Positions 33,033-46,972 of a stretch of 64,000 nt of DNA are shown here, piece by piece; within the stretch, counting starts at the first letter, position 1; every line of letters begins with the position of its first letter. A program made the translations under genes and the position numbers. Source of the stretch: Desulfobacula toluolica Tol2 (GTDB lineage Bacteria > Desulfobacterota > Desulfobacteria > Desulfobacterales > Desulfobacteraceae); the NCBI RefSeq assembly GCF_000307105.1, contig NC_018645.1, forward strand, positions 1,934,578 through 1,998,577. The letters run 5' to 3'. Under the pieces are notes generated by a model. It saw only the letters and a list, made by a program, of their open reading frames with translations. It did not search any database and had not been told where the DNA came from.

Positions 33033-34208
33033 TTACCCCTGGCGTTTCAGCCAGGAAAGTCCTTTAGACTGATTATTGAGTTTTGCTTCATCCTGATATG
33101 GGGTTTTGTTTGTTTTGTCTTGATCCTCGGCAGGCGCTTGATTGTTTTGCTCTTCTTCCGTATTTTTTTGTTCTTTTGGGTTTTCTGCAATATATTTGGC
33201 ATATCCCCACTTGTACCTGCCGAATTTGCAATATCCACGGACATTATTGAATCGGGCATCCCCATTGTTTTCCATTGGGATAACATTACCATCAATATTC
33301 GGGCTTAAATATTTTGCCAATTCTACACTTCCGCCGCCTGAAAGGAGAATGGAATCCATGTCCCAGTCATTTTCCCACAGCCGGTTGAGATCGGATGCAA
33401 TGGCTGATGCGGCATGAGTGTAAACTCTTTTTTTGAGATTTGAGATATTATATTCTTTTCCCTTGATCTTGATCATTCCCGAATCAATAAATTTAAACAT
33501 TCTATACAATTCAATATTCATGTTGCTTTCCTGCCTTAATTTGTTGGCGATTACGGAAAAGCACTTTGAAATACCGGTATCCATTGTAAGGGAACCTCTT
33601 TCAATATAGTGAAGGTGGTCAAAAATACTAAAATCCGTGGTCTTAAAACCAATATCCACAACGCCAAGCTTCTGGGTGGCAAGGTCCCGGTTTTTTATTT
33701 TTCCCTGTTTATCAAAAAGCATGTTGAAAATAGAGCCAATGGGTTGGGGAATGATATGAATTTTATCAATATTAATTCTTTTTTTTACATCCTCTCCATT
33801 TGTATTGTGAAGGGTTATGTCGTGAACCCCCAAGATCATCTCTTTTAATTTTTTGTGATCTCTTCTTAAATATCCAACAGGTAAGCCTGATACAACATGA
33901 AGGGGTGCTGATGTGTCGGTGCAGATACTTGCGGCTGTGATAGCGAGGATTTTAACAAACTCTTCAAGAAGTTTTTCCTGGTCAAGAGTGAATTCACGGA
34001 TGTTTGACTGAAGTTCGGCATAATTGCCAAGAAAATAGGATTTGTTTTCCAGGGTAATATGCAGATTTGAAGTTGAAGAATCTTCACCCAATGAAGAACG
34101 GTAATGGATATCCGTGGCATCTCCGAGGATTGATTTGAATATGACGGAATTTTTGCCATTATATGCTTTTGTAAACCCAAACCCGACATCAATTCCAATA
34201 ATTTCCAT
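33033..34208 (-). CDS. ParM/StbA-like actin-family ATPase (chromosomal)
   Basis: 391 residues. The actin-fold phosphate-1 loop is IGIDVGFGFTKAY (residues 4-16), phosphate 2 is GVVDIGFKTTDF (about 188-199), and the adenosine loop is ILLSGGGSVELAKYL (about 293-307). This matches the ParM/Alp group of bacterial and archaeal actin-like proteins (ALP_N). The last 55 residues are a Gln/Asn/Lys/Glu-rich low-complexity tail. No parR-like DNA-binding partner is adjacent; the downstream gene is larB. Function on a chromosome is unknown. Confidence 0.85.
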   Translation of the reverse strand: MEIIGIDVGFGFTKAYNGKNSVIFKSILGDATDIHYRSSLGEDSSTSNLHITLENKSYFLGNYAELQSNIREFTLDQEKLLEEFVKILAITAASICTDTSAPLHVVSGLPVGYLRRDHKKLKEMILGVHDITLHNTNGEDVKKRINIDKIHIIPQPIGSIFNMLFDKQGKIKNRDLATQKLGVVDIGFKTTDFSIFDHLHYIERGSLTMDTGISKCFSVIANKLRQESNMNIELYRMFKFIDSGMIKIKGKEYNISNLKKRVYTHAASAIASDLNRLWENDWDMDSILLSGGGSVELAKYLSPNIDGNVIPMENNGDARFNNVRGYCKFGRYKWGYAKYIAENPKEQKNTEEEQNNQAPAEDQDKTNKTPYQDEAKLNNQSKGLSWLKRQG

Positions 34209-36277: not shown

Positions 36278-36326
36278 AGCGACTTTAGATGTGGGAACCG
36301 GAGACTTTTTTTTAAAATCCAAAATA

Positions 36327-36354
36327 TTGACAAAAAAATAAATTTTTGTAGAAT
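36327..36354 (+). promoter_or_regulatory. Sigma-70 promoter of the ATPase/helicase island
   Basis: TTGACA (36327-36332), 16-base AT spacer, TAGAAT (36349-36354). The ATG at 36420 with AAAAGG upstream follows about 60 bases later. This is the only good promoter seen between cmoB and the island genes. Confidence 0.65.
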
Positions 36355-36419
36355 ACTGGGTTGCTTTTAATTCATAAAACATAAACCTGAAAAGGTAATA
36401 AAATAAAAAAAGGCAATAT

Positions 36420-37642
36420 ATGACGGAAAACACAAGTTTCTTTTTTTTACAGTAGGACGGCAAAACTGGCTTACCTTTATTGAGGATGATCTGGAAAATT
36501 ATATCGGGCAGGGCGGCTCCAAAGTGAGGTTTGTCAACGGTGATTATGGTGATGGTAAAACCCATTTTATGTCGGTGATCCGGCATCTTGCCATGGAAAA
36601 GAAATTTGCAGTATCTTTTGTGGTCCTTACCCGGGAAGTTCCCATTCATAAATTTGAAACCGTTTACCAGACAATTGTCAGGCAGCTTCAGGGTGATTTT
36701 CAAGGAATCGGTATCAGGAACATGCTGGCGGCATGGCTGGAAAAACTGGATACAACAACGGTTCAGGGCAAAACGGATGACGCCCGGAAAAACAGGATGG
36801 CTTTGGCCGAAGAGTTCAGAAATATCCAGGGCATGGACATTAATTTTGCCAATGCCCTGGCCGCCCTTGTGAACAACAGGTTTGACCCTGAGTTTTTTGA
36901 AGATCAAGAAAAACAGGATGCCGACCATGAGGTGTTGCTTCACTGGTTTGAAGGGGGCAAGGTGACCAAACGCGAACTCAAGCCGTTTCAAATCTATGAG
37001 TTCCTCAATAAAACCAACAGCAAGCAGTTTATGAACTCTTTGATTTTGTTTTTGCGACATATCGGCCATCAGGGATTGATCCTGCTCATGGATGAGATGG
37101 AAACTGTTGTGGCACAAAGTGCTTCCATTCGTAATGCAGCTTATGAAAATGTTCGCTTGCTGATTGATAACAGTGAGTCTTCACAATATCTTCACATCTT
37201 TTTTTCCATTATTCCCGATGTGTTGATGTCGGAAAAAGGGTTTAAGTCTTATGATGCATTGTGGAGCCGTATCCGATCCATTGGTGAATCAGCAAAATTA
37301 AATTACAGGGGTGTGCTGGTGGATATCCATCAAACCCCGCTTAAGAACGAAGAGCTGGTTGAGCTTGGGGGGTGCCTGCGAACTTTGCATGGAATTTCCT
37401 ACCGCTGGGAACCAAAGGAGATGGTAACTGATGAGCTGATGGAGCAGATCTGTTCCAACCAGAAGCGAATGGGGGTGATCAGCGAGGTTCGTTTGTTTAT
37501 TAAACATTTGATTCACATCCTTGATATGGCTGAACAGGGACAGTCTCCTCAGGATTTGGATATGGACCGGGAGATGGTGGAAACCAGACGGAAAACGGAG
37601 GCTGAAAAAATTGAGCAAAAGCAGCCTTCCTGGGATAATTGA
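36420..37642 (+). CDS. BrxC/BrxD-like P-loop ATPase 1 (DUF2791), frame-interrupted
   Basis: Member of the BREX-type ATP-binding family. The ATG at 36420 has AAAAGG before it but runs into TAG after 11 codons. Shifting -1 on the T8 run (36441-36448) joins it to the long frame that continues FTVGRQNWLTFIEDDLE and then the Walker A GDYGDGKTHF. The restored protein is about 407 residues, with Walker B ILLMDEMET (about 220). Without the shift only an internal GTG at 36524, just before Walker A, is open, which would cut off conserved residues. It is the first of four same-strand genes. Whether the break is programmed, phase-variable, decay or an error is open. Confidence 0.75.
36441..36449 (+). other. 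Slippery site U UUU UUA in ATPase 1
   Basis: T8 followed by A. In the frame of the ATG at 36420 the phase is T|TTT|TTA (36443-36449), the classic -1 heptamer. A -1 slip restores the long frame beginning ACA GTA GGA. Confidence 0.6.
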
Positions 37643-37696
37643 CCAAAACCATAACCCAAAATCCAATACAAGAACCCAAAACCTAAAACCCAAACA
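37643..37696 (+). repeat. Degenerate CCCAAAA-type repeats between the two ATPase genes
   Basis: The 66-base gap contains repeated (A)ACC(C/T)(A)AAA units: CCAAAACC, AACCCAAAATCC, AACCCAAAACCTAAAACCC. It is strand-asymmetric (almost no G) and has no hairpin. Confidence 0.55.
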
Positions 37697-37708
37697 GGAC
37701 ACACAAGA

Positions 37709-38974
37709 ATGGATGATCTGGATTTTCAGGATCAGTTGAACACTTTGGATAATTTTGAACTTCGCAGGGCAGTGGAGCGGTTGCGTGAAGGTTTGTTTGA
37801 TCCTCTGGGTGTGCGCTTGCTCACAACTGGTGAGGCACAACTTACCACTGCCTTTGATAAAGGCGTTAAAGCCATTGACAGTGACAAATTCTCCCATCTG
37901 TGTGTTTGCGGTGCATATGGACAAGGCAAATCCCACAGCCTCAATTATATTAAACAGCGGGCTTTGGATCAGAATTTTGTGGTCAGTTATGTGAATCTTG
38001 ATCCAAGACAGGTGCCGTTTCATGATTTTAAGAGTGTTTACCGGGCATTGATGGGGGCCATGGAATTTCCCGAACCAGAAAAATCCTTTGTTTCTGTATG
38101 GAAAACCCGTGTTGCTCAATGGCTGGCCTTGCCGGAAAACAGCAAAAAAACTTTGTCAGATCTTATTCCACAGGAGATCCCCCACCGTTTCAGAGCAATT
38201 TTAGCTGCTATGGCCCGGAAAAATATGTCCTTGTCCTCCAAAAAAAGAAAATTTAAAAAACATGCTCGATTCAAACCAAGGGAATTTTCCTGGATACTGA
38301 AAAACGCCCTTATGGGAAAAAATATCCCTGCCTGGCGGTTGCGGTCTGTTTTTTATTATCGTGAGGTATCGTTTTATAAGGAGCATTCTTTGGTATGCAG
38401 TGAACAAGAACATTATCTGGCAATGGTTCAAGGCATGGCAAATTTGTTTCAAAAAATCGGGTTCAAGGGATGGGTGGTGTTGTTTGACGAAGGCGAATCC
38501 ATTGTACAAACCCGTATTACCTGCCGCAGTAAAAGTTATGCGTTTCTTGATGAAATTTTTTATCCTGAATCAACCGCCTTGGGATTGTATCCTGTTTTTG
38601 CCTTTACCCCTGAATTTTTCACCCATATTGCAAACGAAGACTATGACCAGGTTAAAATCAAAAAAAATGCCGGCAATGAAATCTCTTTATCCCCTGAGGT
38701 TCCCTATTTTAAACAGAACTACGGCAGGGCCTGGGAAAAAATAAATATTCACACTTTGCAGGACTTGTCACCAAAAGAGTGGGAAACGCTGATTCATAAA
38801 CTGATCTTAGTCCACGCAGGTGCCTATGGATGGAAACCTCCTGTTGCTTTGATGCAAAGCCAAATGAACCGGGAATTATCAGGACTGAAAGGTATTGAAG
38901 CACGTTTGAAACTCAAAATTCTGGTAAATCATCTTGATTTTGAGCAGCAGAGCCAGGTGATGGCCGTTGCTTGA
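37709..38974 (+). CDS. BrxC/BrxD-like P-loop ATPase 2 (DUF2791)
   Basis: 421 residues, intact. LRRAVERLREGLFDPLGVRLLT is the usual N-terminal segment of this family (split: residues 18-27 and 28-39). Walker A is CGAYGQGKSHS (about 66-76) and Walker B WVVLFDEGES (about 254-263). A second, divergent copy beside ATPase 1; the two share the GxYGxGKxH core and the following 'xVSYVNLDPRQVPFHDF' type strand. AGGACACACAAG precedes the ATG. The family is known from BREX (BrxC/BrxD) and, from memory, from TerB-ATPase-helicase defence loci; neither PglZ, BrxL nor TerB is present here. Confidence 0.85.
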   Translation: MDDLDFQDQLNTLDNFELRRAVERLREGLFDPLGVRLLTTGEAQLTTAFDKGVKAIDSDKFSHLCVCGAYGQGKSHSLNYIKQRALDQNFVVSYVNLDPRQVPFHDFKSVYRALMGAMEFPEPEKSFVSVWKTRVAQWLALPENSKKTLSDLIPQEIPHRFRAILAAMARKNMSLSSKKRKFKKHARFKPREFSWILKNALMGKNIPAWRLRSVFYYREVSFYKEHSLVCSEQEHYLAMVQGMANLFQKIGFKGWVVLFDEGESIVQTRITCRSKSYAFLDEIFYPESTALGLYPVFAFTPEFFTHIANEDYDQVKIKKNAGNEISLSPEVPYFKQNYGRAWEKINIHTLQDLSPKEWETLIHKLILVHAGAYGWKPPVALMQSQMNRELSGLKGIEARLKLKILVNHLDFEQQSQVMAVA

Positions 38975-39100
38975 TAAAGTTTGTTAAGGATTGTTTTTGG
39001 GGCCTCCTGCTATTTGATCTACCCTGAATAACATGAAGATTTATGAAGGGATAAAATAATAATTATCTCTTTGCCTTCTTGATGGTGAAAGCGTTTTTTA

Positions 39101-41417
39101 ATGTCAAACCCATTGCTGTTACAGCTTCCCAATACATTTCGAGCCTTTTATGGCGGTTTTCTTCGTTTGCACAAGGCACAGCAGGAAGCTGTCGGCCCTA
39201 TCCTGAAGGGCAAAGATCTTGTGCTGCAGGCTGCCACGGGTTCCGGCAAAAGCGAGGCTGTACTGGCACCCTGTCTTGAGCGGGTGATTCAGTCAGGCAG
39301 GAAAACAGCGGTTTTATATATCATTCCCACCCGTGCCCTTGCCATGGATTTGAAAAGGCGGTTTGAATCCATTATCACGGAACGCCTGGGGCTGAACCTT
39401 GCCGTTCGAACCGGTGATATCAAGCGTGCCGGCGGAAAATCCCCTGACATCATGCTCACCACCCCCGAATCCCTGGACTTGATGCTGGGCAGTGCCAATT
39501 CAGATCTTAAAGCGTTTTTATTCCGTGTGAAAATTGTGATCATTGATGAAGTTCATTCTTTGATTCACCAGTACCGGAGGCGGCATCTGGTTTATCTTTT
39601 CACCCGCCTTGAACGTAAAACAGGTCTGCCCTTACAGAAAATCGCCATGTCCGCAACCATTTCCCGTGCGGACGATGTTATTGGATTTTTCGGATTTCAA
39701 GATTCTGTACAATCGGTCATGGCCAGTGTAAAACGAAAAATAAGGGCGCGCCTGCTGCATATAAAAAAAGAAAAAACCGAGATTCCGGCATTGCTCAATG
39801 ATCTGTATGATACCTGGCAGTACCGCAAAATCCTGATTTTTGTCAACAGCCGGGTTGCCTGCGACAGGCTGTTTAGCATTGTCAACAAGACAGGAAAATT
39901 TCAAGGGGTGTCGGAACTTCACTATTCCAACCTCAAGCCTTTGGAACGAAAAAAGGCTGAAAAAAGATTCCGCAAAAGATCTCATGCTCTGTGCATTGCC
40001 ACAAGCACACTGGAAATGGGTATTGATGTGGGGGATGTGGATGCCGTGCTGTTGTATCAGCCAACCGGTTCTGTTGCAGCGTTTCTTCAGCGCATTGGCC
40101 GGTCCAATCGTCGTGAACAGGAAATTAATTTCTGGGGGATTTGCTGTGGTGACTGTTCAGGGGATCAACTTGTGCGGTTTCTTGCCCTTCTTGAATTGTC
40201 CGGTAAGGGAAAAATAGAATTTCATAGTGACAGGACATTGCCCAGTGTGTTGAGCCAGCAGGTGATATCCTGTCTGTATGAAAAAAAAGGCTCTCACTTG
40301 AGGCTTTGCAATCTTTGTTTCCAGATCAGCACGAGATTCTGCCTTCTGTTTTCAAATCCCTTGAAAAAAAACGCTGGTTAAAACAGTCTCGACTCCAAGG
40401 CCTGTTTGGCGGCGGGTGGCAATACAGAAACCATTTGTTTGATTATAAAATCTGGGGAAATTTTCCAGAAGCGGAAACTCAATATAATCTTGAGGTCTCC
40501 GGCAAGGCCATTGCTGATATTCCCCAATCCATTGTTTCCCAGATGGATGTGGGAGATAAACTTTACCTTGCCGGAAGGTTGCTCAGGATTTTAAATATTG
40601 ATATTGGCGAACAAAAAAAAGTGCTGGCACGGCCTTCCATGGGCAAGGAGGAAAAACAGCTTGCCTGGATCGGCCTGGGGCCTCCAGTGTCATATGAAGT
40701 TGCCAGGACAATGGGGCATATACTTAACGCTGGTGAAAGTAAAAGTAAAATTAAAGATGAAAACTGCCTTTTTTCCCGAACCAGAAAGCTTTTGCAACAA
40801 GAGTGGGAAAGAGGTGAAAAAAAGTGGTTCTGGAAAACGGCATTGAGGTTGTGCCCGGGAAAAAAGCTGTTTTTCGGTATTGCACTTTTCTGGGGTCGAT
40901 TGCCAACCTGGTTCTGGAGTGGAGTATCCGGGAGAAGGTTACAGATGATGAGATATCTGTAACATCTGATGAGATTGGCGTGGAATGTTCTGACCGGATC
41001 AAATTTGAAGAGTTGAACCTGCCGGTTGATAAAAACGCGTTTCAAACCTGGGTAAAAAAGCATTTTAAAATACTCAGCTCTTTGATGCCTTTGAATCTGT
41101 TTTGTAAAACCCTGCCAAGGGAGCTGTTTTTACAGGAATTAACGGATTTTTTATTTGACCATCGGGTGGCACTCGCCTTTGCCCATTATCGTGACACTTC
41201 ATCAAAAATTATTTCCGGTGATATGGCAGATCTTGTCTGTGATGTTCCTGTTCAGGATAACCAGTACCCTTGTGTCATTGATATCAAGGCTGGGGAGTCT
41301 TTATTGGAGATGGAAAAAACAAAAAGCAAGATTGCAGGCTTTGAAAGCCCGGTAGAGCTTTTTTGTTCGGATAACTGCCTGCAACCCTCAAGCCGGTTGA
41401 ATTTCGTGTATGGATAA
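39101..41417 (+). CDS. Lhr-like SF2 DEAD/DEAH helicase, possible C-terminal nuclease, two -1 breaks
   Basis: The restored protein is about 772 residues, spread over three frames: 39101-40288, then 40288-40824, then 40824-41417. Helicase motifs are AATGSGKSEA (about 44), IIDEVHSL (about 147), MSATISR (about 182), ATSTLEMGIDVGDVDAV and QRIGRSNR (about 330). The middle and last parts carry a winged-helix and Lhr-type region (FLGSIANLVLEW). Near the end GDMADLVCDV and VIDIKAGES resemble PD-(D/E)XK motifs II-III. Both breaks are -1 on A runs (A8 at 40281-40288, A7 at 40817-40823). Without shifting, translation stops after 426 residues, just beyond the two RecA lobes. The stop TAA overlaps the next ATG. 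Confidence 0.78.
40281..40288 (+). other. Slippery site A AAA AAA in the SF2 helicase
   Basis: A8 in phase GA|A..: codons GAA AAA AAA GGC. The heptamer A|AAA|AAA is 40282-40288. A -1 slip gives AGG CTC TCA CTT GAG and continues the conserved downstream frame. Confidence 0.6.
40818..40824 (+). other. Slippery site A AAA AAG (dnaX type) in the SF2 helicase
   Basis: Codons GAA AAA AAG TGG; the -1 frame continues GTG GTT CTG GAA. AGAGGTG directly 5' could act as a Shine-Dalgarno-like stimulator, though the spacing is shorter than in dnaX. A small GGCA/TGCC hairpin lies about 13 bases downstream. Confidence 0.6.
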
Positions 41418-43917
41418 TGCAAACCGATGAGGATCGAACAGCGGCATGGCAGGAGTTTGCCGATTTGATCTCAATTTTGTGGGAAAAGAGCATCGTCAAT
41501 GGCAAAGGCCCTCATATGTTTTGTTTTGGTTCCCAATCCCGGCAGGATCTTCTGGACTGGGCACAGAGTGAAGAAGGAAAAAAAGCAAAATTTTTATGGC
41601 AGACCCAGCCAAACCCATGGACGGATCTGCGTCAGGTCTTTAAGTCACATTTTCATATGCCGGCTCCCGGAATTGTGTCTTTGTCTACACTTGGGCATGT
41701 GTTTGGGTGTACTCAGGAATTTGATTCGCCTCCAAGCTTGTTCCACAATCATGGAACCGATGGGTCAAGCGTGGCAGGACTTGAATCAATGGTCAAAGCC
41801 GATCTGTCTATTATGGTTGATTTGTATGCAAAGGCCTGTTTCTATCTGAAAAGCCAATGGGTAAAAGAATGGGAATTTTGTTTTGAAAAAGATAAAGACG
41901 CCGGGGTTATTCCATATCTTGAATTCATCAAAGAAGAGCAGCGGTTACAAGAAGATGATATATTAACCCTTCAGGAGTTGACGCTGCAGGAAAGAATGCT
42001 GAAATTTCGTGCCATTGGTCATTTGCGGTTTGATCATACACGGCTGAATCATGAAGGGCGTTTTCTGTATGTTTTTAAATTTTCACAGGAAACCTGTCCG
42101 TCAAAATTTCGGACAGGAGATTTTCTCAGGCTTGCTCCTCATGGTATCCAGGATATTCAAACCGGTTTTCCCGTTATCCTGGCTGAGGTTGATATGGGGG
42201 CAGGGCAGATATCCATTCTTTCCCGATCCGGTTTTGCCCGATCAGGTTTTGCCGGGTCCGGGCAAATTCAGTTAACTAAAAATTTTTTGTACTCCCTGGA
42301 AGAGGATACAAGTGACTGGAATCAGGACAAGCTGACCCATGTTGCAGCCACTGTTTTTAAGAAAAATCATCCCCATTATTTGCAGCAAATGCTTGCAGGA
42401 CAGGCACTTGACCGGCAACCTTTGGCGTTATCATCCTGGCTGAAAAAATGGATTGCCAGTAATGACCATGGATTGAATTCTTCACAGCAACGCGCATTGG
42501 CGTTGCCGTTCCAATACCGGACCAGTCTGATACAAGGTCCGCCCGGAACCGGGAAAACCCATCTGCTTGGCTGGATTTTAATCGTCTTGATCCTGCAGGC
42601 CCATGAAGCTAAAAAGCCTCTTCGCATAGGTGTGAGTGCCTTGACTCACCAGGCTATTGATACTGTATTGAAAAAGGTGACAAAGCTTGTGAGCCAGTAT
42701 CTGCCGGGCTGTTTTCCAGGTTGTTGTATAAAATGTGGTCAGTCAGGACAGCTTGTAAACACAGATGCCCATAAAAATCCTGATGAAAACTCATATGAAA
42801 ACTCGTATGAAAATCGGGATGAAAAAAAGACAATAGCATGGAGGTGGAGTTTTCAGATGATGCAAATGATGTCCTGGGTCGACCCTGGTTGATTTTAGGT
42901 GCCACAGGCTATGGATTTTACAATCTTTTTAAGAGCAAAGATAATGGATTTCCCCCGGCCCTTGACTGGATTATCTTTGATGAAGCTTCCCAGGTGCCGG
43001 TGCCCCAGGCTCTTTTGAGTCTGATTTACAGCAGGGGCAATTTTTTGTTCCTGGGTGATGTTTGCCAGTTGCCTCCCATTGTACTGGGAAATTATGGGGA
43101 ATATTCCAGAGAGCCTGCAGACCGGTTTTTCAACCGGTCTATCCTGTCAAATTTGCTGGATATCTATCCAAAACCGCACCGGCAAACCCTTGATGTTACT
43201 TACCGCATGAACAAAGAGATCTGTGTTTTTCCCGGCAAAATCTGGTATGACGGCATGCTGCACCCGGCCCCCGGCAATGCCCATACCCGGCTTGTTCTGG
43301 ATAAGTCCTTATGCAGGGCCGATAACAATGACGTGCATAATCACAATCATAATAAAGATAACAATAACAGTCTGCAGCAGTTCTATGACAAAATCATAGA
43401 TCCTGCAAAACCTGTTGTGCTGGTATTGACAGATCACCATGGCTGTTCCCAGAAATCAGATGTTGAAGCCGATTTAATGGCGGCCCTTGCCCACAGGTTA
43501 ATGCAGTGTTATGGAGTGTCACCGGATCAAATGGCTTTGATTTCACCTCACAGGGCACAGAACAATGCCATTATCAAAAAACTTGGAGAAAAAATGCCTG
43601 AAAATTTACCGCTTCCCTGTGTGGATACGGTTGAACGGGTTCAAGGAGCAGAACGGGATATTATCATTTTCGGTATCACCTCTTCTGACCCTGATCATCT
43701 GCTAAGTGAGTTTCTAAACAGTCCCAACCGCTTGAATGTTGCCATGACCCGGGCAAAAAACAAATTGATCGTTATTGGAAGCCCGGCCTTTTTTTCTGTT
43801 ATACCTGACTCGGAAGCTGTGCTGGAGAAAAATTATTGCTTTAAAAAACTAATGATTCACTGCCAAAAACAAAATGCTGTTTTTTATGATTTTGACCAAG
43901 GTTGTGCTTTGGGCTGA
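41417..43917 (+). CDS. Dna2/NAM7-like SF1B helicase, one -1 break
   Basis: About 833 residues when restored, from the ATG at 41417 (inside TAATG, coupled to the previous gene) to 43917. The N-terminal 340 residues have no assignable domain. Motif I is IQGPPGTGKTHL (about 372-383), motif II WIIFDEASQ (about 520), motif III FLGDVCQLPPI, motif V VERVQGAERDIIIF and motif VI RLNVAMTRAK. The break is on A7 at 42822-42828, immediately after an Asn/Glu repeat (ENSYENSYENRDE), between motifs Ia and II; unshifted translation stops at 42892 and leaves no complete helicase. It is the last gene of the island. Confidence 0.78.
42823..42829 (+). other. Slippery site A AAA AAG (dnaX type) in the SF1 helicase
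   Basis: Codons GAA AAA AAG ACA; -1 slipping gives GAC AAT AGC ATG GAG and restores the frame containing motifs II-VI. No obvious upstream Shine-Dalgarno-like stimulator. Confidence 0.6.
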
Positions 43918-44315: not shown

Positions 44316-44696
44316 TTAAGCGGTTTTTATTTCAATCTGTCTGGGTTTTGCTGCTTCAGATTTCGGTAGATGCAGCCTTAAAACACCATTTTTCAGCTCA
44401 GCTTCAACTTTTTCAACATTTATTGTCTGGGGAACGGAAAAATTTCTGACATACTCAACATCTGAGAACTCTTCATAGGTAGCTGTTCCTTTTGTGGTAA
44501 GATGCCTGACACCGGATATAGACAATGTCCCGTTATCAATATCAACTGAGATATCTTCTTTTACAACTCCCGGCATGTCTGCGTGGAGAAGAATTTCATT
44601 TTCGTTTTCATAAATATCAACTGCAGGGGTTGCTTCATAGCGTGTTTTTTTAACGTTTTTTTTATCTTGTTTTGTGATTTCATGGGCCTTATCCAT
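44316..44696 (-). CDS. Hsp20 small heat-shock protein, type B copy 2
   Basis: 126 residues: a short polar N-terminus and an alpha-crystallin domain (about 25-115) with VDIYENENEILLHADMPGV, VDIDNGTLSISG and the C-terminal strand GVLRLHLPKSEAA. It ends RQIEIKTA, lacking a clear I-x-I extension. Closest relative in the window is the gene at 46101-46487 (shared FSDVEYVRNFSVP and LLHADMPGV). It is the last gene of the Hsp20 cluster, 34 bases after its A-type partner. Confidence 0.92.
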   Translation of the reverse strand: MDKAHEITKQDKKNVKKTRYEATPAVDIYENENEILLHADMPGVVKEDISVDIDNGTLSISGVRHLTTKGTATYEEFSDVEYVRNFSVPQTINVEKVEAELKNGVLRLHLPKSEAAKPRQIEIKTA

Positions 44697-44730
44697 GGCA
44701 AACCTCCTTTTTATGAATTAATTTTGGAGT

Positions 44731-45150
44731 TTAACTAATACTAATTTTCTTGGGTTTTGACGCCTCATGTTTGGGAAGAATAAGGTAAAGCACTCCGTTT
44801 TTTAATGTTGCTTCTACTTTTGTGGAGTCAACATCCGACGGCAGGGTAAAACTTCGGGAAAATGATCCGACCCCCCGTTCTGTTTTATGGGTTTTATACC
44901 CTTCTGGTGCATCAGATCCCCTGGTGCCGCTTATTTCAAGATAGTTTCCCTGGATCTTTACATTCAGATCTTCCTTTTCAAGTCCTGGAACTTCGGCCCT
45001 GATTTCAAAATTATCGCCGTTTTCATAAAGATTTGTCCGGGGAGAGGTTTCTTCTAAATCCCATCTGTAACCGTAAAGATTGTCCAGTTTCTTCTGGAGA
45101 AGATTCATGGACCCGAACAATCTGTCTATATCACTTAATCTTGTAAGCAT
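44731..45150 (-). CDS. Hsp20 small heat-shock protein, type A copy 2
   Basis: 139 residues. The N-terminus IDRLFGSMNLLQKKLDNLYG precedes the alpha-crystallin domain (SPRTNLYENGDNFEIRAEVPG, NYLEISGTRG, GVLYLILPKHEAS; pieces given separately). Paralogue of 46526-46972, with which it shares PEGYKTH and SFSRSFTLP. It has its own candidate promoter upstream (TTGACA at 45317-45322). Confidence 0.93.
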   Translation of the reverse strand: MLTRLSDIDRLFGSMNLLQKKLDNLYGYRWDLEETSPRTNLYENGDNFEIRAEVPGLEKEDLNVKIQGNYLEISGTRGSDAPEGYKTHKTERGVGSFSRSFTLPSDVDSTKVEATLKNGVLYLILPKHEASKPKKISIS

Positions 45151-45293
45151 AATTCTTCCTCCTTCTTTGATAGGCGTTTAAGTTGTTGCGGGAACCATTT
45201 GCAAAGTAGACTCGACTATTTATGAAAGATTTAAGGTGTCGTCCAATCTATCTGCAAGACCTTTGCTCCCACAAAATTATCTGTATTTGAGCC

Positions 45294-45322
45294 TAAATTA
45301 ATTCTTGTTTTTTTCATGTCAA
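45294..45322 (-). promoter_or_regulatory. Candidate promoter for the distal hsp20 pair
   Basis: Minus strand TTGACATG (TTGACA at 45317-45322) followed about 16-17 bases later by TAATTT. A similar TTGACATG stands before the proximal hsp20 gene. No CIRCE element was found. Confidence 0.4.
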
Positions 45323-45431
45323 CAGGGTTTTATTGTTTTTCATAAAATTTTTATTATTAGTAATAATAAATGGTCTCATGTTTACTTTGTTGCTTTTGTG
45401 TTGACTTGTGATTTTGTTTGATATCAGTCTG

Positions 45432-45995
45432 TTAACCGTCTTTGATTTCAATTTGTTTTGCGCGGCTTCCGACAATCTCCATTCTGGGTATAGTAATATT
45501 CAACACTCCGTTTTTAAAATCAGCTTTTACATTATCTTTGTTGGCATCTTCAGGCAGTGACAACGTGCGTTGAAAAGACCCATAGGATCTTTCGAGTCTG
45601 TAAAAGTTCTTGCTTTTTTCTTCTTTTTCCTGTTTCTTCTCGCCTCGGATTATTAATGTGTCATCAACAAGTTCAAGGCTAACATCCTTTTCGCTGACGC
45701 CTGGGATTTCTACAGAAACCGTGTATTCTTTCTGAGTTGAACCCAGATCGAGCCGGGGTTTTAGTAAGCTGCCGGTGATTCCCTCAAGCATCCGTGAGCC
45801 GGGCCTAAAGGGTGACAATCCAAATTGGCTGACAAAATTATCAAATAACCGATCCATTTCATCGTGAAAGATACTCAATGAGTTTGGTGAATAGCTGTTA
45901 CTTGCTTTGTTGTTGTACTTTACAGGAATAGTATGGCCAATGTCGCCGTTTTCTTTTTTAAACCAATTCCATGGTGCTAATTTCTTAATATCCAT
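45432..45995 (-). CDS. Hsp20 small heat-shock protein, type C (HSP16.5/IbpA-like)
   Basis: 187 residues, the longest of the five. The N-terminal arm has LAPWNWFKKE and FHDEMDRLFDNFVSQFG. The alpha-crystallin domain contains LDLGSTQKEYTVSVEIPGV, KDVSLELVDDTLIIRGEKK and NGVLNITIPR, and the tail KQIEIKDG. It lies between the two A-B pairs. AAGGAG stands 6 bases before the ATG. The transcript from the upstream pair would carry a long hairpin (46025-46080) in the preceding spacer. Confidence 0.93.
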   Translation of the reverse strand: MDIKKLAPWNWFKKENGDIGHTIPVKYNNKASNSYSPNSLSIFHDEMDRLFDNFVSQFGLSPFRPGSRMLEGITGSLLKPRLDLGSTQKEYTVSVEIPGVSEKDVSLELVDDTLIIRGEKKQEKEEKSKNFYRLERSYGSFQRTLSLPEDANKDNVKADFKNGVLNITIPRMEIVGSRAKQIEIKDG

Positions 45996-46024
45996 TTTTC
46001 ATCTCCTTTTATTGCTGCTTGTTT

Positions 46025-46080
46025 TCGCACAAGATGGCTGCAATGCTCCTGACTGGAAAGTTTCCGCAGCCATCTTGCGA
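46025..46080. repeat. Long hairpin between hsp20 genes
   Basis: CAAGATGGCTGC (46030-46041) pairs perfectly with GCAGCCATCTTG (46066-46077), extended by TCG/CGA with a 2-base bulge; loop 24 bases. There is no T tract, so it is not a plain intrinsic terminator; it could stabilise mRNA ends or respond to temperature. It does not include the next Shine-Dalgarno. Confidence 0.7.
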
Positions 46081-46100
46081 CAAGAGATGGTGTGGTAATT

Positions 46101-46487
46101 TTATGCGGCTTTTATCTCGATCATTTTGGGTTTGGCCGCCTCAGATTTGGGCATATGCAGTTTGAGAACACCGTCTTTGAGTTCTGCTTTCACCCTTTCA
46201 ACATCAATGCTCGGGGGTACGGAAAAATTTCTGACATATTCAACATCAGAAAACTCCTCCCGGGTTGAAATCCCTTTGTTGTCACACCGTCGTAAACCTG
46301 AAAGATAAAGTGTTCCGTTATCAATATTTACGGAAACATCATTCTTTTTTACACCAGGCATATCTGCATGAAGAAGTATTTCATCATCATTTTCATAGAT
46401 ATCAACATATGGGATTTCAGTCCTTAATTCCCTGGTTTTTTCAATGTCTTTTGCTTGTTTTTTAGCAATATCTTTTCTGTCACTCAT
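46101..46487 (-). CDS. Hsp20 small heat-shock protein, type B copy 1
   Basis: 128 residues; a Lys/Asp-rich N-terminus (RKDIAKKQAKDIEK) and an alpha-crystallin domain with YVDIYENDDEILLHADMPG, VNIDNGTLYLSG and GVLKLHMPKSEAA. Paralogue of 44316-44696. It starts 38 bases after the A-type partner. Confidence 0.92.
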   Translation of the reverse strand: MSDRKDIAKKQAKDIEKTRELRTEIPYVDIYENDDEILLHADMPGVKKNDVSVNIDNGTLYLSGLRRCDNKGISTREEFSDVEYVRNFSVPPSIDVERVKAELKDGVLKLHMPKSEAAKPKMIEIKAA

Positions 46488-46525
46488 GATAACCTCCTAA
46501 TCAATTTGATACTATTATTTATTGA

Positions 46526-46972
46526 TTAATTGATGGTGATTTGTTTGGGATTGGCAACTTCTGATTTCGGCAGTGTAAGATAAAGGATGCCGTCTTTCAG
46601 AGTAGCTTCAACTTTATCTGCATTTACATCGTCAGGAAGGGTGAAACTTCGTGAGAAGGTGCTGCCGCATCTTTCTCTGCGATGGGTTTTATAGCCTTCC
46701 GGGGTATCCACAGAGCGTTTGCCACTGATTTCGAGGTAGTTTCCTTGGATTTTAATGTTCAGGTCATCTTTTGAAATTCCGGGGATTTCAGTCTGTACTT
46801 CAAAGTTGGCACCATTTTCCAGAAGGTTGGTTCTGGGTGAATTAGATGGCAATGTGAAGGCAGGCCCATAAAGACATGATCGGTCAAAATCATTGAAAAG
46901 TCTGTCCATTCTGCTCCGGAGCAGATCCATGGCTCCGAACATTCTGTCGATGTAATTCATTCTTGTAAACAT
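46526..46972 (-). CDS. Hsp20 small heat-shock protein, type A copy 1
   Basis: 148 residues. N-terminus IDRMFGAMDLLRSRMDRLF, then the alpha-crystallin domain with TNLLENGANFEVQTEIPGI, NYLEISGKRS, STFSRSFTLPDDV and GILYLTLPKSEVA. It is the first gene of the cluster, and a good promoter plus direct repeats lie upstream. Confidence 0.93.
   Translation of the reverse strand: MFTRMNYIDRMFGAMDLLRSRMDRLFNDFDRSCLYGPAFTLPSNSPRTNLLENGANFEVQTEIPGISKDDLNIKIQGNYLEISGKRSVDTPEGYKTHRRERCGSTFSRSFTLPDDVNADKVEATLKDGILYLTLPKSEVANPKQITIN

What the first reader, a model, noticed from the sequence alone, without database searches (positions are those of the whole stretch)
36327..43917. Four-gene ATPase/helicase island: a candidate undescribed defence system
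Seen: one promoter, then two different DUF2791 (BrxC/BrxD-type) ATPases, an Lhr-like SF2 helicase and a Dna2/NAM7-like SF1 helicase, all same strand, two of them coupled by TAATG. Known: BrxC/D ATPases occur in BREX, and (from memory) a TerB-ATPase-helicase trio is described as Shango. Here PglZ, BrxL, methylase and TerB are all absent, while the ATPase is doubled and a second helicase is added. The region sits between core genes (cmoB) and a mobile-element-rich stretch. Inference: an anti-phage or DNA-repair system with a new architecture.
Basis: partly seen in the sequence, partly recalled or inferred. Interest (0 to 1): 0.85.

Follow-up and report, generated by a model that had tools for sequence, protein, structure and literature searches.

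The report
Wreck of an undescribed helicase-nuclease operon
The stretch holds the broken remains of a four-gene bacterial machine that is intact in related bacteria, where two ATPases, a small unknown protein and usually one giant helicase-nuclease protein sit side by side and probably take DNA apart; we found no description of the intact machine, and the copy seen here looks dead.

Summary
They are not an intact four-gene system. Relatives show the intact layout: X (about 280 aa, no known family), A, B, and usually G, one protein of about 1,900-2,200 aa with both helicases and a Cas4/Dna2-type Fe-S PD-(D/E)XK nuclease between them. Against the orthologous locus after cmoB in a congener, the window has lost nearly all of X plus the start of A, and the nuclease region of G (about 1.2 kb), and has three frame breaks at A7-A8 runs. 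The 'TAATG-coupled helicases' are halves of one broken gene. dN/dS is about as low as among intact copies: recent decay.

The intact module is conserved in order in Desulfobacterota, Latescibacterota and SAR324 (one MAG is labelled Gemmatimonadota). It matches no PADLOC system as a unit and fails tested features of BREX type 2 and Shango. Its likely action is DNA unwinding and degradation by G after loading by the ATPase pair. Defence is plausible (relatedness, patchiness, repeated decay) but not shown: no enrichment of defence families in the flanks, and X not found on plasmids or viral contigs as searched.

The parts
36327..36354 (+). promoter-like site (TTGACA-16-TAGAAT) upstream of the remnant of X
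   Evidence: 15 found, 13.1 expected by chance; window 36314-36377 aligns to L053 1882-1944, upstream of X there; the first hexamer is the same in both, the second is not clearly kept (by eye)
36420..36448 (+). first codons of gene X (MTENTSF) joined directly to codon 35 of A, out of frame: scar of a deletion of about 0.93 kb (rest of X and start of A; size worked out from L064 coordinates)
   Evidence: window sequence; X of L053 starts MTENT, A from residue 35 reads FTVGRQNW; X absent from the whole genome
36446..37642 (+). A: BrxD-type ATPase 1, lacking its own first 34 residues and start codon; Walker A GDYGDGKTH and Walker B LLMDE kept
   Evidence: 82.7% identity to L064 A residues 35-430
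37709..38974 (+). B: BrxD-type ATPase 2, open reading frame whole (73.8% identity to L064 B)
39101..40288 (+). G, piece 1: SF2 (BrxHI/Lhr-like) helicase core; frame lost at the A8 run 40281-40288
   Evidence: 83% identity to L064 G 16-412
40282..40823 (+). G, piece 2: Lhr-type winged-helix region; frame lost at the A7 run 40817-40823
   Evidence: 67% identity to L064 G 411-613
40817..41381 (+). G, piece 3: end of the BrxHI-like part, up to the edge of the nuclease deletion
   Evidence: 57% identity to L064 G 570-780
41381..42828 (+). G, piece 4: SF1B (Dna2/Upf1-like) helicase, first part; frame lost at the A7 run 42822-42828
   Evidence: 60% identity to L064 G 1176-1704
42822..43917 (+). G, piece 5: SF1B helicase, second part
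   Evidence: 72% identity to L064 G 1638-1978

Best explanation
The locus is the recently decayed copy of an accessory four-gene module X-A-B-G that is intact in relatives (shown). In the intact form, two different BrxD-type ORC/Cdc6-like AAA+ ATPases, A and B, probably form one mixed ring or clamp. With the help of X, which ends in a winged-helix-like domain (tentative), they load or gate G on DNA (inferred from the BrxD-BrxHI pairing in BREX type 2). G is a single chain holding a BrxHI/Lhr-like SF2 motor, a Cas4/Dna2-type Fe-S nuclease and a Dna2-like SF1 motor (shown by sequence; nuclease fold supported by a model). G would unwind DNA and cut the freed strand, probably to destroy invading DNA (inferred). 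The window copy very probably cannot work as a unit: X, the start of A and the nuclease are gone and G is broken into five pieces (lesions shown, loss of function inferred).
For: Conserved order in 38 named loci found by their X: A follows in 37 of 38 and B in 35 of 38 (the misses end at the contig edge), and G is recognisable in 28 of 38. Of 21 loci with at least 6.2 kb after B, 16 have G as one full ORF. A and B each form their own clade of 36 rows including the window, and the window forks with its congener L064 in both (support 81 and 96, quick tree). Lesions. dN/dS window-L064 is 0.11 (A), 0.17 (B) and 0.14-0.27 (G pieces) against 0.05-0.28 among the intact pairs printed. Nuclease: one Cys, D, D-I-K, Q and three Cys invariant in 16 of 16 aligned regions (C84, D195, D213-I-K215, Q227, C309, C312, C318 in fragment numbering); model hits Cas4 SSO0001 3.7e-5, AdnA, EXO5, MGME1, Dna2. 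G halves hit the solved ATP-dependent DNA helicase 5v9x (2e-31; an Lhr by recall) and DNA2 (2.2e-26). Patchy: X in 17 of 97 relatives and 5 of 26 in the genus; 0 of 14 cmoB-downstream stretches of congeners show X, A or B at E <= 1e-5. A second wreck in G027.
Against: No activity has been measured for any member. The three frame breaks at A7-A8 runs could in part be sequencing errors (the two deletions could hardly be). The two SF1 pieces have slightly higher dN/dS than their single printed intact comparisons (0.27 vs 0.24; 0.16 vs 0.12), otherwise no sign of relaxed selection. Some relatives lack the nuclease and SF1 parts: L093 and L097 keep only the SF2 part after X-A-B, and L070, L071 and L073 show no G nearby, so the nuclease may not be essential. 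Flanks of intact copies hit 41 PADLOC families among 142 proteins against 105 among 132 from random regions. X is absent from the plasmid collection and from viral contigs as searched. X's winged-helix reading rests on weak matches (Z about 5-6, with unrelated folds ranked above; nothing at E <= 0.001).
Confidence: 0.72

Rival explanations
1. The intact X-A-B-G module is a DNA-repair or replication-restart machine (a Dna2/Lhr-type end-processing complex), not a defence system; the window copy is still a wreck.
For: Of ten neighbours scanned with Pfam most are ordinary genes such as glutathione synthase, sulfatase, a ComM/Mg-chelatase-type gene, RlmL, an M20 peptidase, and cmoB in the genus; no PADLOC enrichment by family count; X not on plasmids or viral contigs as searched; trees look mostly vertical by eye; the SF2 half also resembles the ligase-associated DNA-damage helicase model, below its cut-off.
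Against: Patchy presence even within the genus: X in 5 of 26 genomes; decay seen twice; nearest ATPase and helicase families are BREX and Shango parts. RecB (E <= 1e-100) is found in 15 of 17 X-bearing and 73 of 80 X-less relatives, so X-A-B-G is not a RecBCD stand-in.
Confidence: 0.33
2. The window holds a minimal but working variant that has shed X and the nuclease, its frame breaks being sequencing errors.
For: B is whole, Walker motifs are kept, dN/dS is low; the three small breaks all sit at A7-A8 runs; two relatives (L093, L097) keep only the SF2 part after X-A-B, and a distant sister set has no Dna2 part seen.
Against: A has no start of its own and is out of frame with the remnant of X; the deletion edge in G also changes frame; no locus looked at keeps SF2 and SF1 without the nuclease, and the natural split in G463 and G388 lies after the nuclease. 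All 38 loci kept X, but they were found by X.
Confidence: 0.07
3. One reading: an intact four-gene defence system of two ATPases and two separate, translationally coupled helicases.
For: All four homologies lie on one strand in order.
Against: Seven ORFs, five pieces for one protein, two deletions, and relatives with the helicases in one chain and an extra first gene.
Confidence: 0.02

Closest known systems
BREX type 2 (BrxD-BrxHI pair)
   Same: A and B score with BrxD, and the SF2 half of G with BrxHI; ATPase-then-helicase order
   Different: No PglZ, PglX, PglW or BrxC hit listed for the window's ORFs; two BrxD-like genes; X added; BrxHI part fused to a nuclease and an SF1 helicase; A 158 and B 73 bits against NCBI's BrxD cut-off of 350. 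PglZ neighbours of ordinary BrxD genes (1002 and 556 bits) were seen in two loci of G081 as a contrast
Shango (SngA-SngB-SngC)
   Same: ATPase and Lhr-like helicase of related families
   Different: No TerB-type SngA: X (two loci) and X' (two loci) have no PADLOC hit, and one X and one X' have no NCBIfam hit. A true Shango set exists in G041 (SngA 323 bits, SngB 620 bits), a genome that also carries X-A-B-G (L047)
Dna2 (nuclease-helicase)
   Same: Fe-S PD-(D/E)XK nuclease followed by an SF1B helicase
   Different: Here fused behind a second, SF2 motor and encoded with two AAA+ ATPases and X
RecBCD / AddAB / AdnAB
   Same: Two motors and one RecB-type nuclease in one machine; the nuclease model matches AdnA (2.4e-4) and, weakly, AddB (0.03)
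   Different: One chain instead of two or three, SF2 plus SF1B motors instead of SF1 pairs, AAA+ partners; co-exists with RecB in most genomes
Mokosh, Dpd (DpdJ), PLuB
   Same: The SF1 helicase half scores with MkoA, DpdJ and PLuB models
   Different: Only the generic helicase domain matches, far below NCBI's cut-off for PLuB (157 of 999 bits)

Membership tests
BREX type 2 | PglZ, PglX/BrxX methylase, BrxC and PglW alongside BrxD-BrxHI (as described in PMC12839542, passages read) | tested here: not met
   No such model among the families listed for the window's seven ORFs; the flank scan of 142 proteins shows one MTase_II protein and no PglZ among the 25 of 41 families shown
BREX type 2 | BrxD equivalog by NCBI's own cut-off (350 bits) | tested here: not met
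   A 157.8 and B 73.3 bits in L060; 126.1 (truncated A) and 79.4 in the window
Shango | TerB-type SngA in the operon | tested here: not met
   X of two loci and X' of two loci gave no PADLOC hit; positive control SngA in L033 scored 322.7 bits
Shango | SngB-type ATPase and SngC-type helicase | tested here: inconclusive
   Both hit, but below BrxD/BrxHI (SngB 99 vs BrxD 129 bits; SngC 198 vs BrxHI 248); a true SngB scores 620 bits
Dna2-like nuclease-helicase | Fe-S PD-(D/E)XK nuclease with one upstream and three downstream cysteines, then an SF1B helicase (rule recalled) | tested here: met
   For intact G only: invariant residues in 16 of 16 aligned regions, of 17 long G proteins found, model matches, DNA2 hit. 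Deleted in the window
Anti-phage defence system | Lies in defence islands | tested here: inconclusive
   41 PADLOC families in 142 flanking proteins (among them SoFic, IetA, NsnA, SspH, MTase_II) vs 105 in 132 control proteins; the tool counts families, not proteins, and the control is inflated by restriction and Abi genes. No enrichment seen
Anti-phage defence system | Protects against phage or plasmid | not testable with these tools
   needs an experiment

The most novel reading that the evidence does not exclude
X-A-B-G is a new kind of DNA-destroying machine: a single-chain, two-motor helicase-nuclease (SF2 and SF1B motors probably moving along opposite strands, with an Fe-S nuclease between them, a RecBCD in one polypeptide) that is loaded on invading DNA by a mixed ORC/Cdc6-like ring of two BrxD paralogues and the protein X.
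Probability: 0.3. Interest if true: 0.78.

Novelty: new variant of a known kind. Interest (0 to 1): 0.52.

Why it matters
The window copy itself is only a wreck, but it points to a conserved, apparently undescribed operon that pairs two BrxD ATPases with a BrxHI-type helicase fused to a complete Dna2-like nuclease-helicase. The role of BrxD in BREX is open: PMC12839542 (passage read) calls it uncharacterised and suggests helicase loading. A four-gene relative with no methylase or PglZ seen, present in an isolate (Desulfobacter latus AcRS2 by record title), would make that loading idea directly testable, and would show whether the BrxD-BrxHI core is by itself a DNA-degrading unit.

Tried and rejected
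Sequencing error as the whole explanation: rejected because two deletions (about 0.93 and 1.2 kb) remove X plus the start of A, and the nuclease; it remains possible for the three A7-A8 frame breaks. No read-level check was possible.

Old pseudogene: argued against, dN/dS is close to that of intact copies (Nei-Gojobori; the piece called G_Lhr3 had one trailing base that was ignored; several dS values were saturated or undefined; only pairs with the window, L064 or L060 were printed).

RecBCD substitute: rejected, RecB found in 15 of 17 X-bearing and 73 of 80 X-less relatives.

Defence-island membership: no support. I used 142 of the 201 flanking ORFs listed (near-duplicate loci, short ones and a few large ones left out) and 132 of 133 control ORFs (one left out for size), from 20 regions of eight genomes. 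The tool gives counts per family, not per protein, and shows only 25 families.

Mobile carriage: X not found in 72,556 plasmid records or, by two short patterns, in viral contigs (24 pattern matches, no relative); A finds only distant relatives (under 60% identity) on 656 plasmids. The phage collection was not searched.

Fold of X: Foldseek nothing at E <= 0.001. VIA-align rows for ORC1/Cdc6-type winged helices, TubR and RctB at Z about 5-6 over residues 164-278 are below the level the tool calls trustworthy, and unrelated rows (a Mediator subunit, designed proteins) rank above them, so the winged-helix reading is tentative. No family is excluded by that.

Weak X hits in L111 and L114 (22-42 bits) lie in surroundings without A, B or G and were set aside as probable chance or coiled-coil matches.

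Literature: six answered searches on the system and one on the strain in the open library found no paper that describes two BrxD genes with a BrxHI-Dna2 fusion. PMC12839542: abstract, outline and 12 passages read. PMC11096173: passages read. The others were seen as search listings only. Most papers of subscription journals are not held, so a description there cannot be excluded.

The tree is the quick version; the careful search did not finish and was not continued. Its agreement between A and B is judged by eye (L088 and L091, for one, sit differently).


Full report
What is in the window. Seven ORFs on the + strand cover 36524-43917. By profile they are two BrxC/BrxD-family ATPases (Pfam PF10923, E 8.1e-50 and 2.1e-26), three pieces of a BrxHI/Lhr-like SF2 helicase (the third by a weak PADLOC hit only, 0.0015) and two pieces of a Dna2/IGHMBP2-like SF1 helicase.

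The genome is one contig of 5,197,905 bases and the three PF10923 matches in it all lie here. The size fits Desulfobacula toluolica Tol2 as I recall it; no call gives a name.

Relatives show what it was. A PF10923 search found matches in 27 of 97 relatives. I fetched surroundings and called ORFs. Where the orthologous ATPase pair lies on a long enough contig, it is preceded by an unnamed gene of about 280 codons (X) and usually followed by one gene of about 1,900-2,200 codons (G) that aligns with both helicases of the window. A scan of the species-genome collection with X gave 38 named loci: by record title five Latescibacterota, one Gemmatimonadota and two SAR324, the rest mostly Desulfobacterota or 'Deltaproteobacteria' (Desulfobacter, Desulfotignum, Desulfobacula, Desulfamplus, Electrothrix and others; two are titled only Proteobacteria/Pseudomonadota). 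The Gemmatimonadota row falls among the Latescibacterota in the tree, so its label may be doubtful. A follows X in 37 of 38 and B in 35 of 38, the misses being at contig ends; G is recognisable in 28 of 38. Of 21 loci with at least 6.2 kb after B, 16 have a full-length single-ORF G. Of the other five, L096 runs off its contig, L082 has G broken in three pieces, L093 stops after the SF2 part, and L070 and L071 have no G nearby. Among loci with less room, L097 also stops after the SF2 part and L073 shows no G in 2.9 kb.

Anatomy of G. About residues 30-705 match BrxHI along nearly its whole profile (295.9 and 299.2 bits in L047 and L053). About 780-1030 (L060 numbering) carry a Cys, G.PDL, GDIK, KWQVAFY and C..C.....CY; one Cys, two Asp, Lys, Gln and three Cys are invariant in 16 of 16 aligned regions. 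An AlphaFold2 model of this region (mean pLDDT 76.7) matches Cas4 SSO0001, AdnA, EXO5, MGME1 and Dna2, with nine hits at E <= 0.001. About 1480-1950 are an SF1B helicase closest among solved structures to DNA2. G is therefore a BrxHI-like helicase fused to a Dna2-like nuclease-helicase. In G463 and G388 it is split into two neighbouring genes after the nuclease. A more distant set in L110, L113, L052 and L055 has X', two BrxD-like genes and an SF2 helicase with no Dna2 part seen; in L055 the helicase runs to the contig end and in L113 the contig ends 222 bases after it. In L052 an Eco57I-type methylase and a Schlafen-AlbA protein lie nearby.

X. No hit over a Pfam cut-off, no PADLOC or NCBIfam hit (X' of L110 has a sub-threshold Pfam match at 0.0092). 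A confident model (pLDDT 91.8, pTM 0.77) has long N-terminal helices, a small sheet and a C-terminal helix-and-strand part that may be a winged helix; structure matches are weak.

How the window copy is broken. Compared with L053/L064 (the same congener locus, same place after cmoA-cmoB): the ATG at 36420 and MTENTSF are the start of X, joined to residue 35 of A in another frame, so X and the start of A are lost. X is nowhere else in the genome by single-sequence or profile search, while the same profile finds it in 17 of the 96 other genomes. G loses frame at A8 40281-40288, A7 40817-40823 and A7 42822-42828, and its residues of about 781-1175, the nuclease, are deleted at about 41381. dN/dS of each piece against L064 is 0.11-0.27, against 0.05-0.28 among the intact pairs printed; only the two SF1 pieces are slightly above their intact comparison. 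The decay is therefore recent. A second wreck, with fragments of B and G, lies in G027.

History and surroundings. In the genus the module sits after cmoB in the window's genome and in G008, G024 and G019; G005 and G017 carry it elsewhere. In 14 cmoB-downstream stretches (of 20 genomes of the genus with a cmoB match; four hold the module there, two were not fetched) no X, A or B remnant was found at E <= 1e-5; the only G hits, in five stretches, were 26-27% matches to a different helicase. Four of the stretches are short (1.7, 5.3, 6.0 and 8.2 kb). A and B form separate clades of 36 rows each with broadly similar internal groupings by eye; the window forks with L064 in both (support 81 and 96), though L063 is nearest to the window's A by path (quick tree). 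X is in 17 of 97 relatives and in 12 of 395 genomes drawn across the phylum, five of these 12 being weak hits of under 60 bits.

Function. The BREX paper PMC12839542 (abstract, outline and passages read) states that BrxD and BrxHI are a tightly linked dyad and suggests that BrxD may load or activate BrxHI. I extend this: A and B as a mixed ORC/Cdc6-like assembly with X, loading G, a two-motor nuclease. That the aim is defence is inferred from family ties, patchiness and repeated decay. Results against it: flanking proteins (142 of 201 ORFs listed) hit 41 PADLOC families at 1e-15 against 105 for 132 control proteins; the flanks include some defence-type hits (SoFic, IetA, NsnA, SspH, MTase_II), and the control count is raised by restriction and Abi genes. 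Of ten neighbours scanned with Pfam, most are ordinary genes. X is not on plasmids or viral contigs as searched. RecB is found in 15 of 17 X-bearing relatives, so the module does not replace RecBCD. Repair is the main rival.

Comparison with the known. It is not BREX type 2 (no PglZ etc. seen, BrxD cut-off not met) and not Shango (no SngA; a true Shango in G041 served as control). Six answered literature searches on the system found no description, with the limits of an open-access library.

Verdict. The intact relative is a new variant of the BrxD-BrxHI kind and worth an experiment; the window copy is a recent wreck.

Noticed in passing
G027 (L058:8780-10206): A second, separate wreck of the module: fragment of B next to short pieces of G in another genus of the family.
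   Followed up: partly
L115:9824-19579 (G463) and L117:9016-19207 (G388): Natural two-gene version of G: SF2 helicase plus nuclease (about 1,110 aa) and SF1 helicase (974-986 aa) as neighbouring genes.
   Followed up: partly
L110:2288-7777, L113:223-5643, L052:4503-10834, L055:267-4930: Distant sister set: X-like protein, two BrxD-like ATPases and an Lhr-like helicase with no Dna2 part seen (L055 and L113 end at or near the contig edge); in L052 beside an Eco57I-type methylase and a Schlafen-AlbA protein.
   Followed up: partly
L093:13474-14127: A nucleotidyltransferase-domain gene lies between B and a G that ends after the SF2 part in a Syntrophobacteraceae MAG.
   Followed up: no
L053:12534-15536 and downstream of cmoB in L163, L164, L165, L168, L169: A different DEAD-type helicase of about 960-1000 aa (BrxHI/SngC-like in L053; 24-27% to the SF2 part of G) is common downstream of cmoB in the genus, where X-A-B-G also sits.
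   Followed up: no
window 44316-46972: Five small-heat-shock (Hsp20-like, by eye) genes in a row on the - strand; 44316-44615 and 46101-46400 are 72% identical, suggesting duplication of a unit.
   Followed up: no
   Followed up: no
window 33033-34208: A 391-aa protein whose start (MEIIGIDVGFGFTKAYNGK) looks like a ParM/actin-like ATPase (by eye only).
   Followed up: no
L033:5680-11487 (G041): The same genome carries both a true Shango set (SngA 323 bits, SngB 620 bits) and an intact X-A-B-G (L047), so the two are not mutually exclusive.
   Followed up: partly
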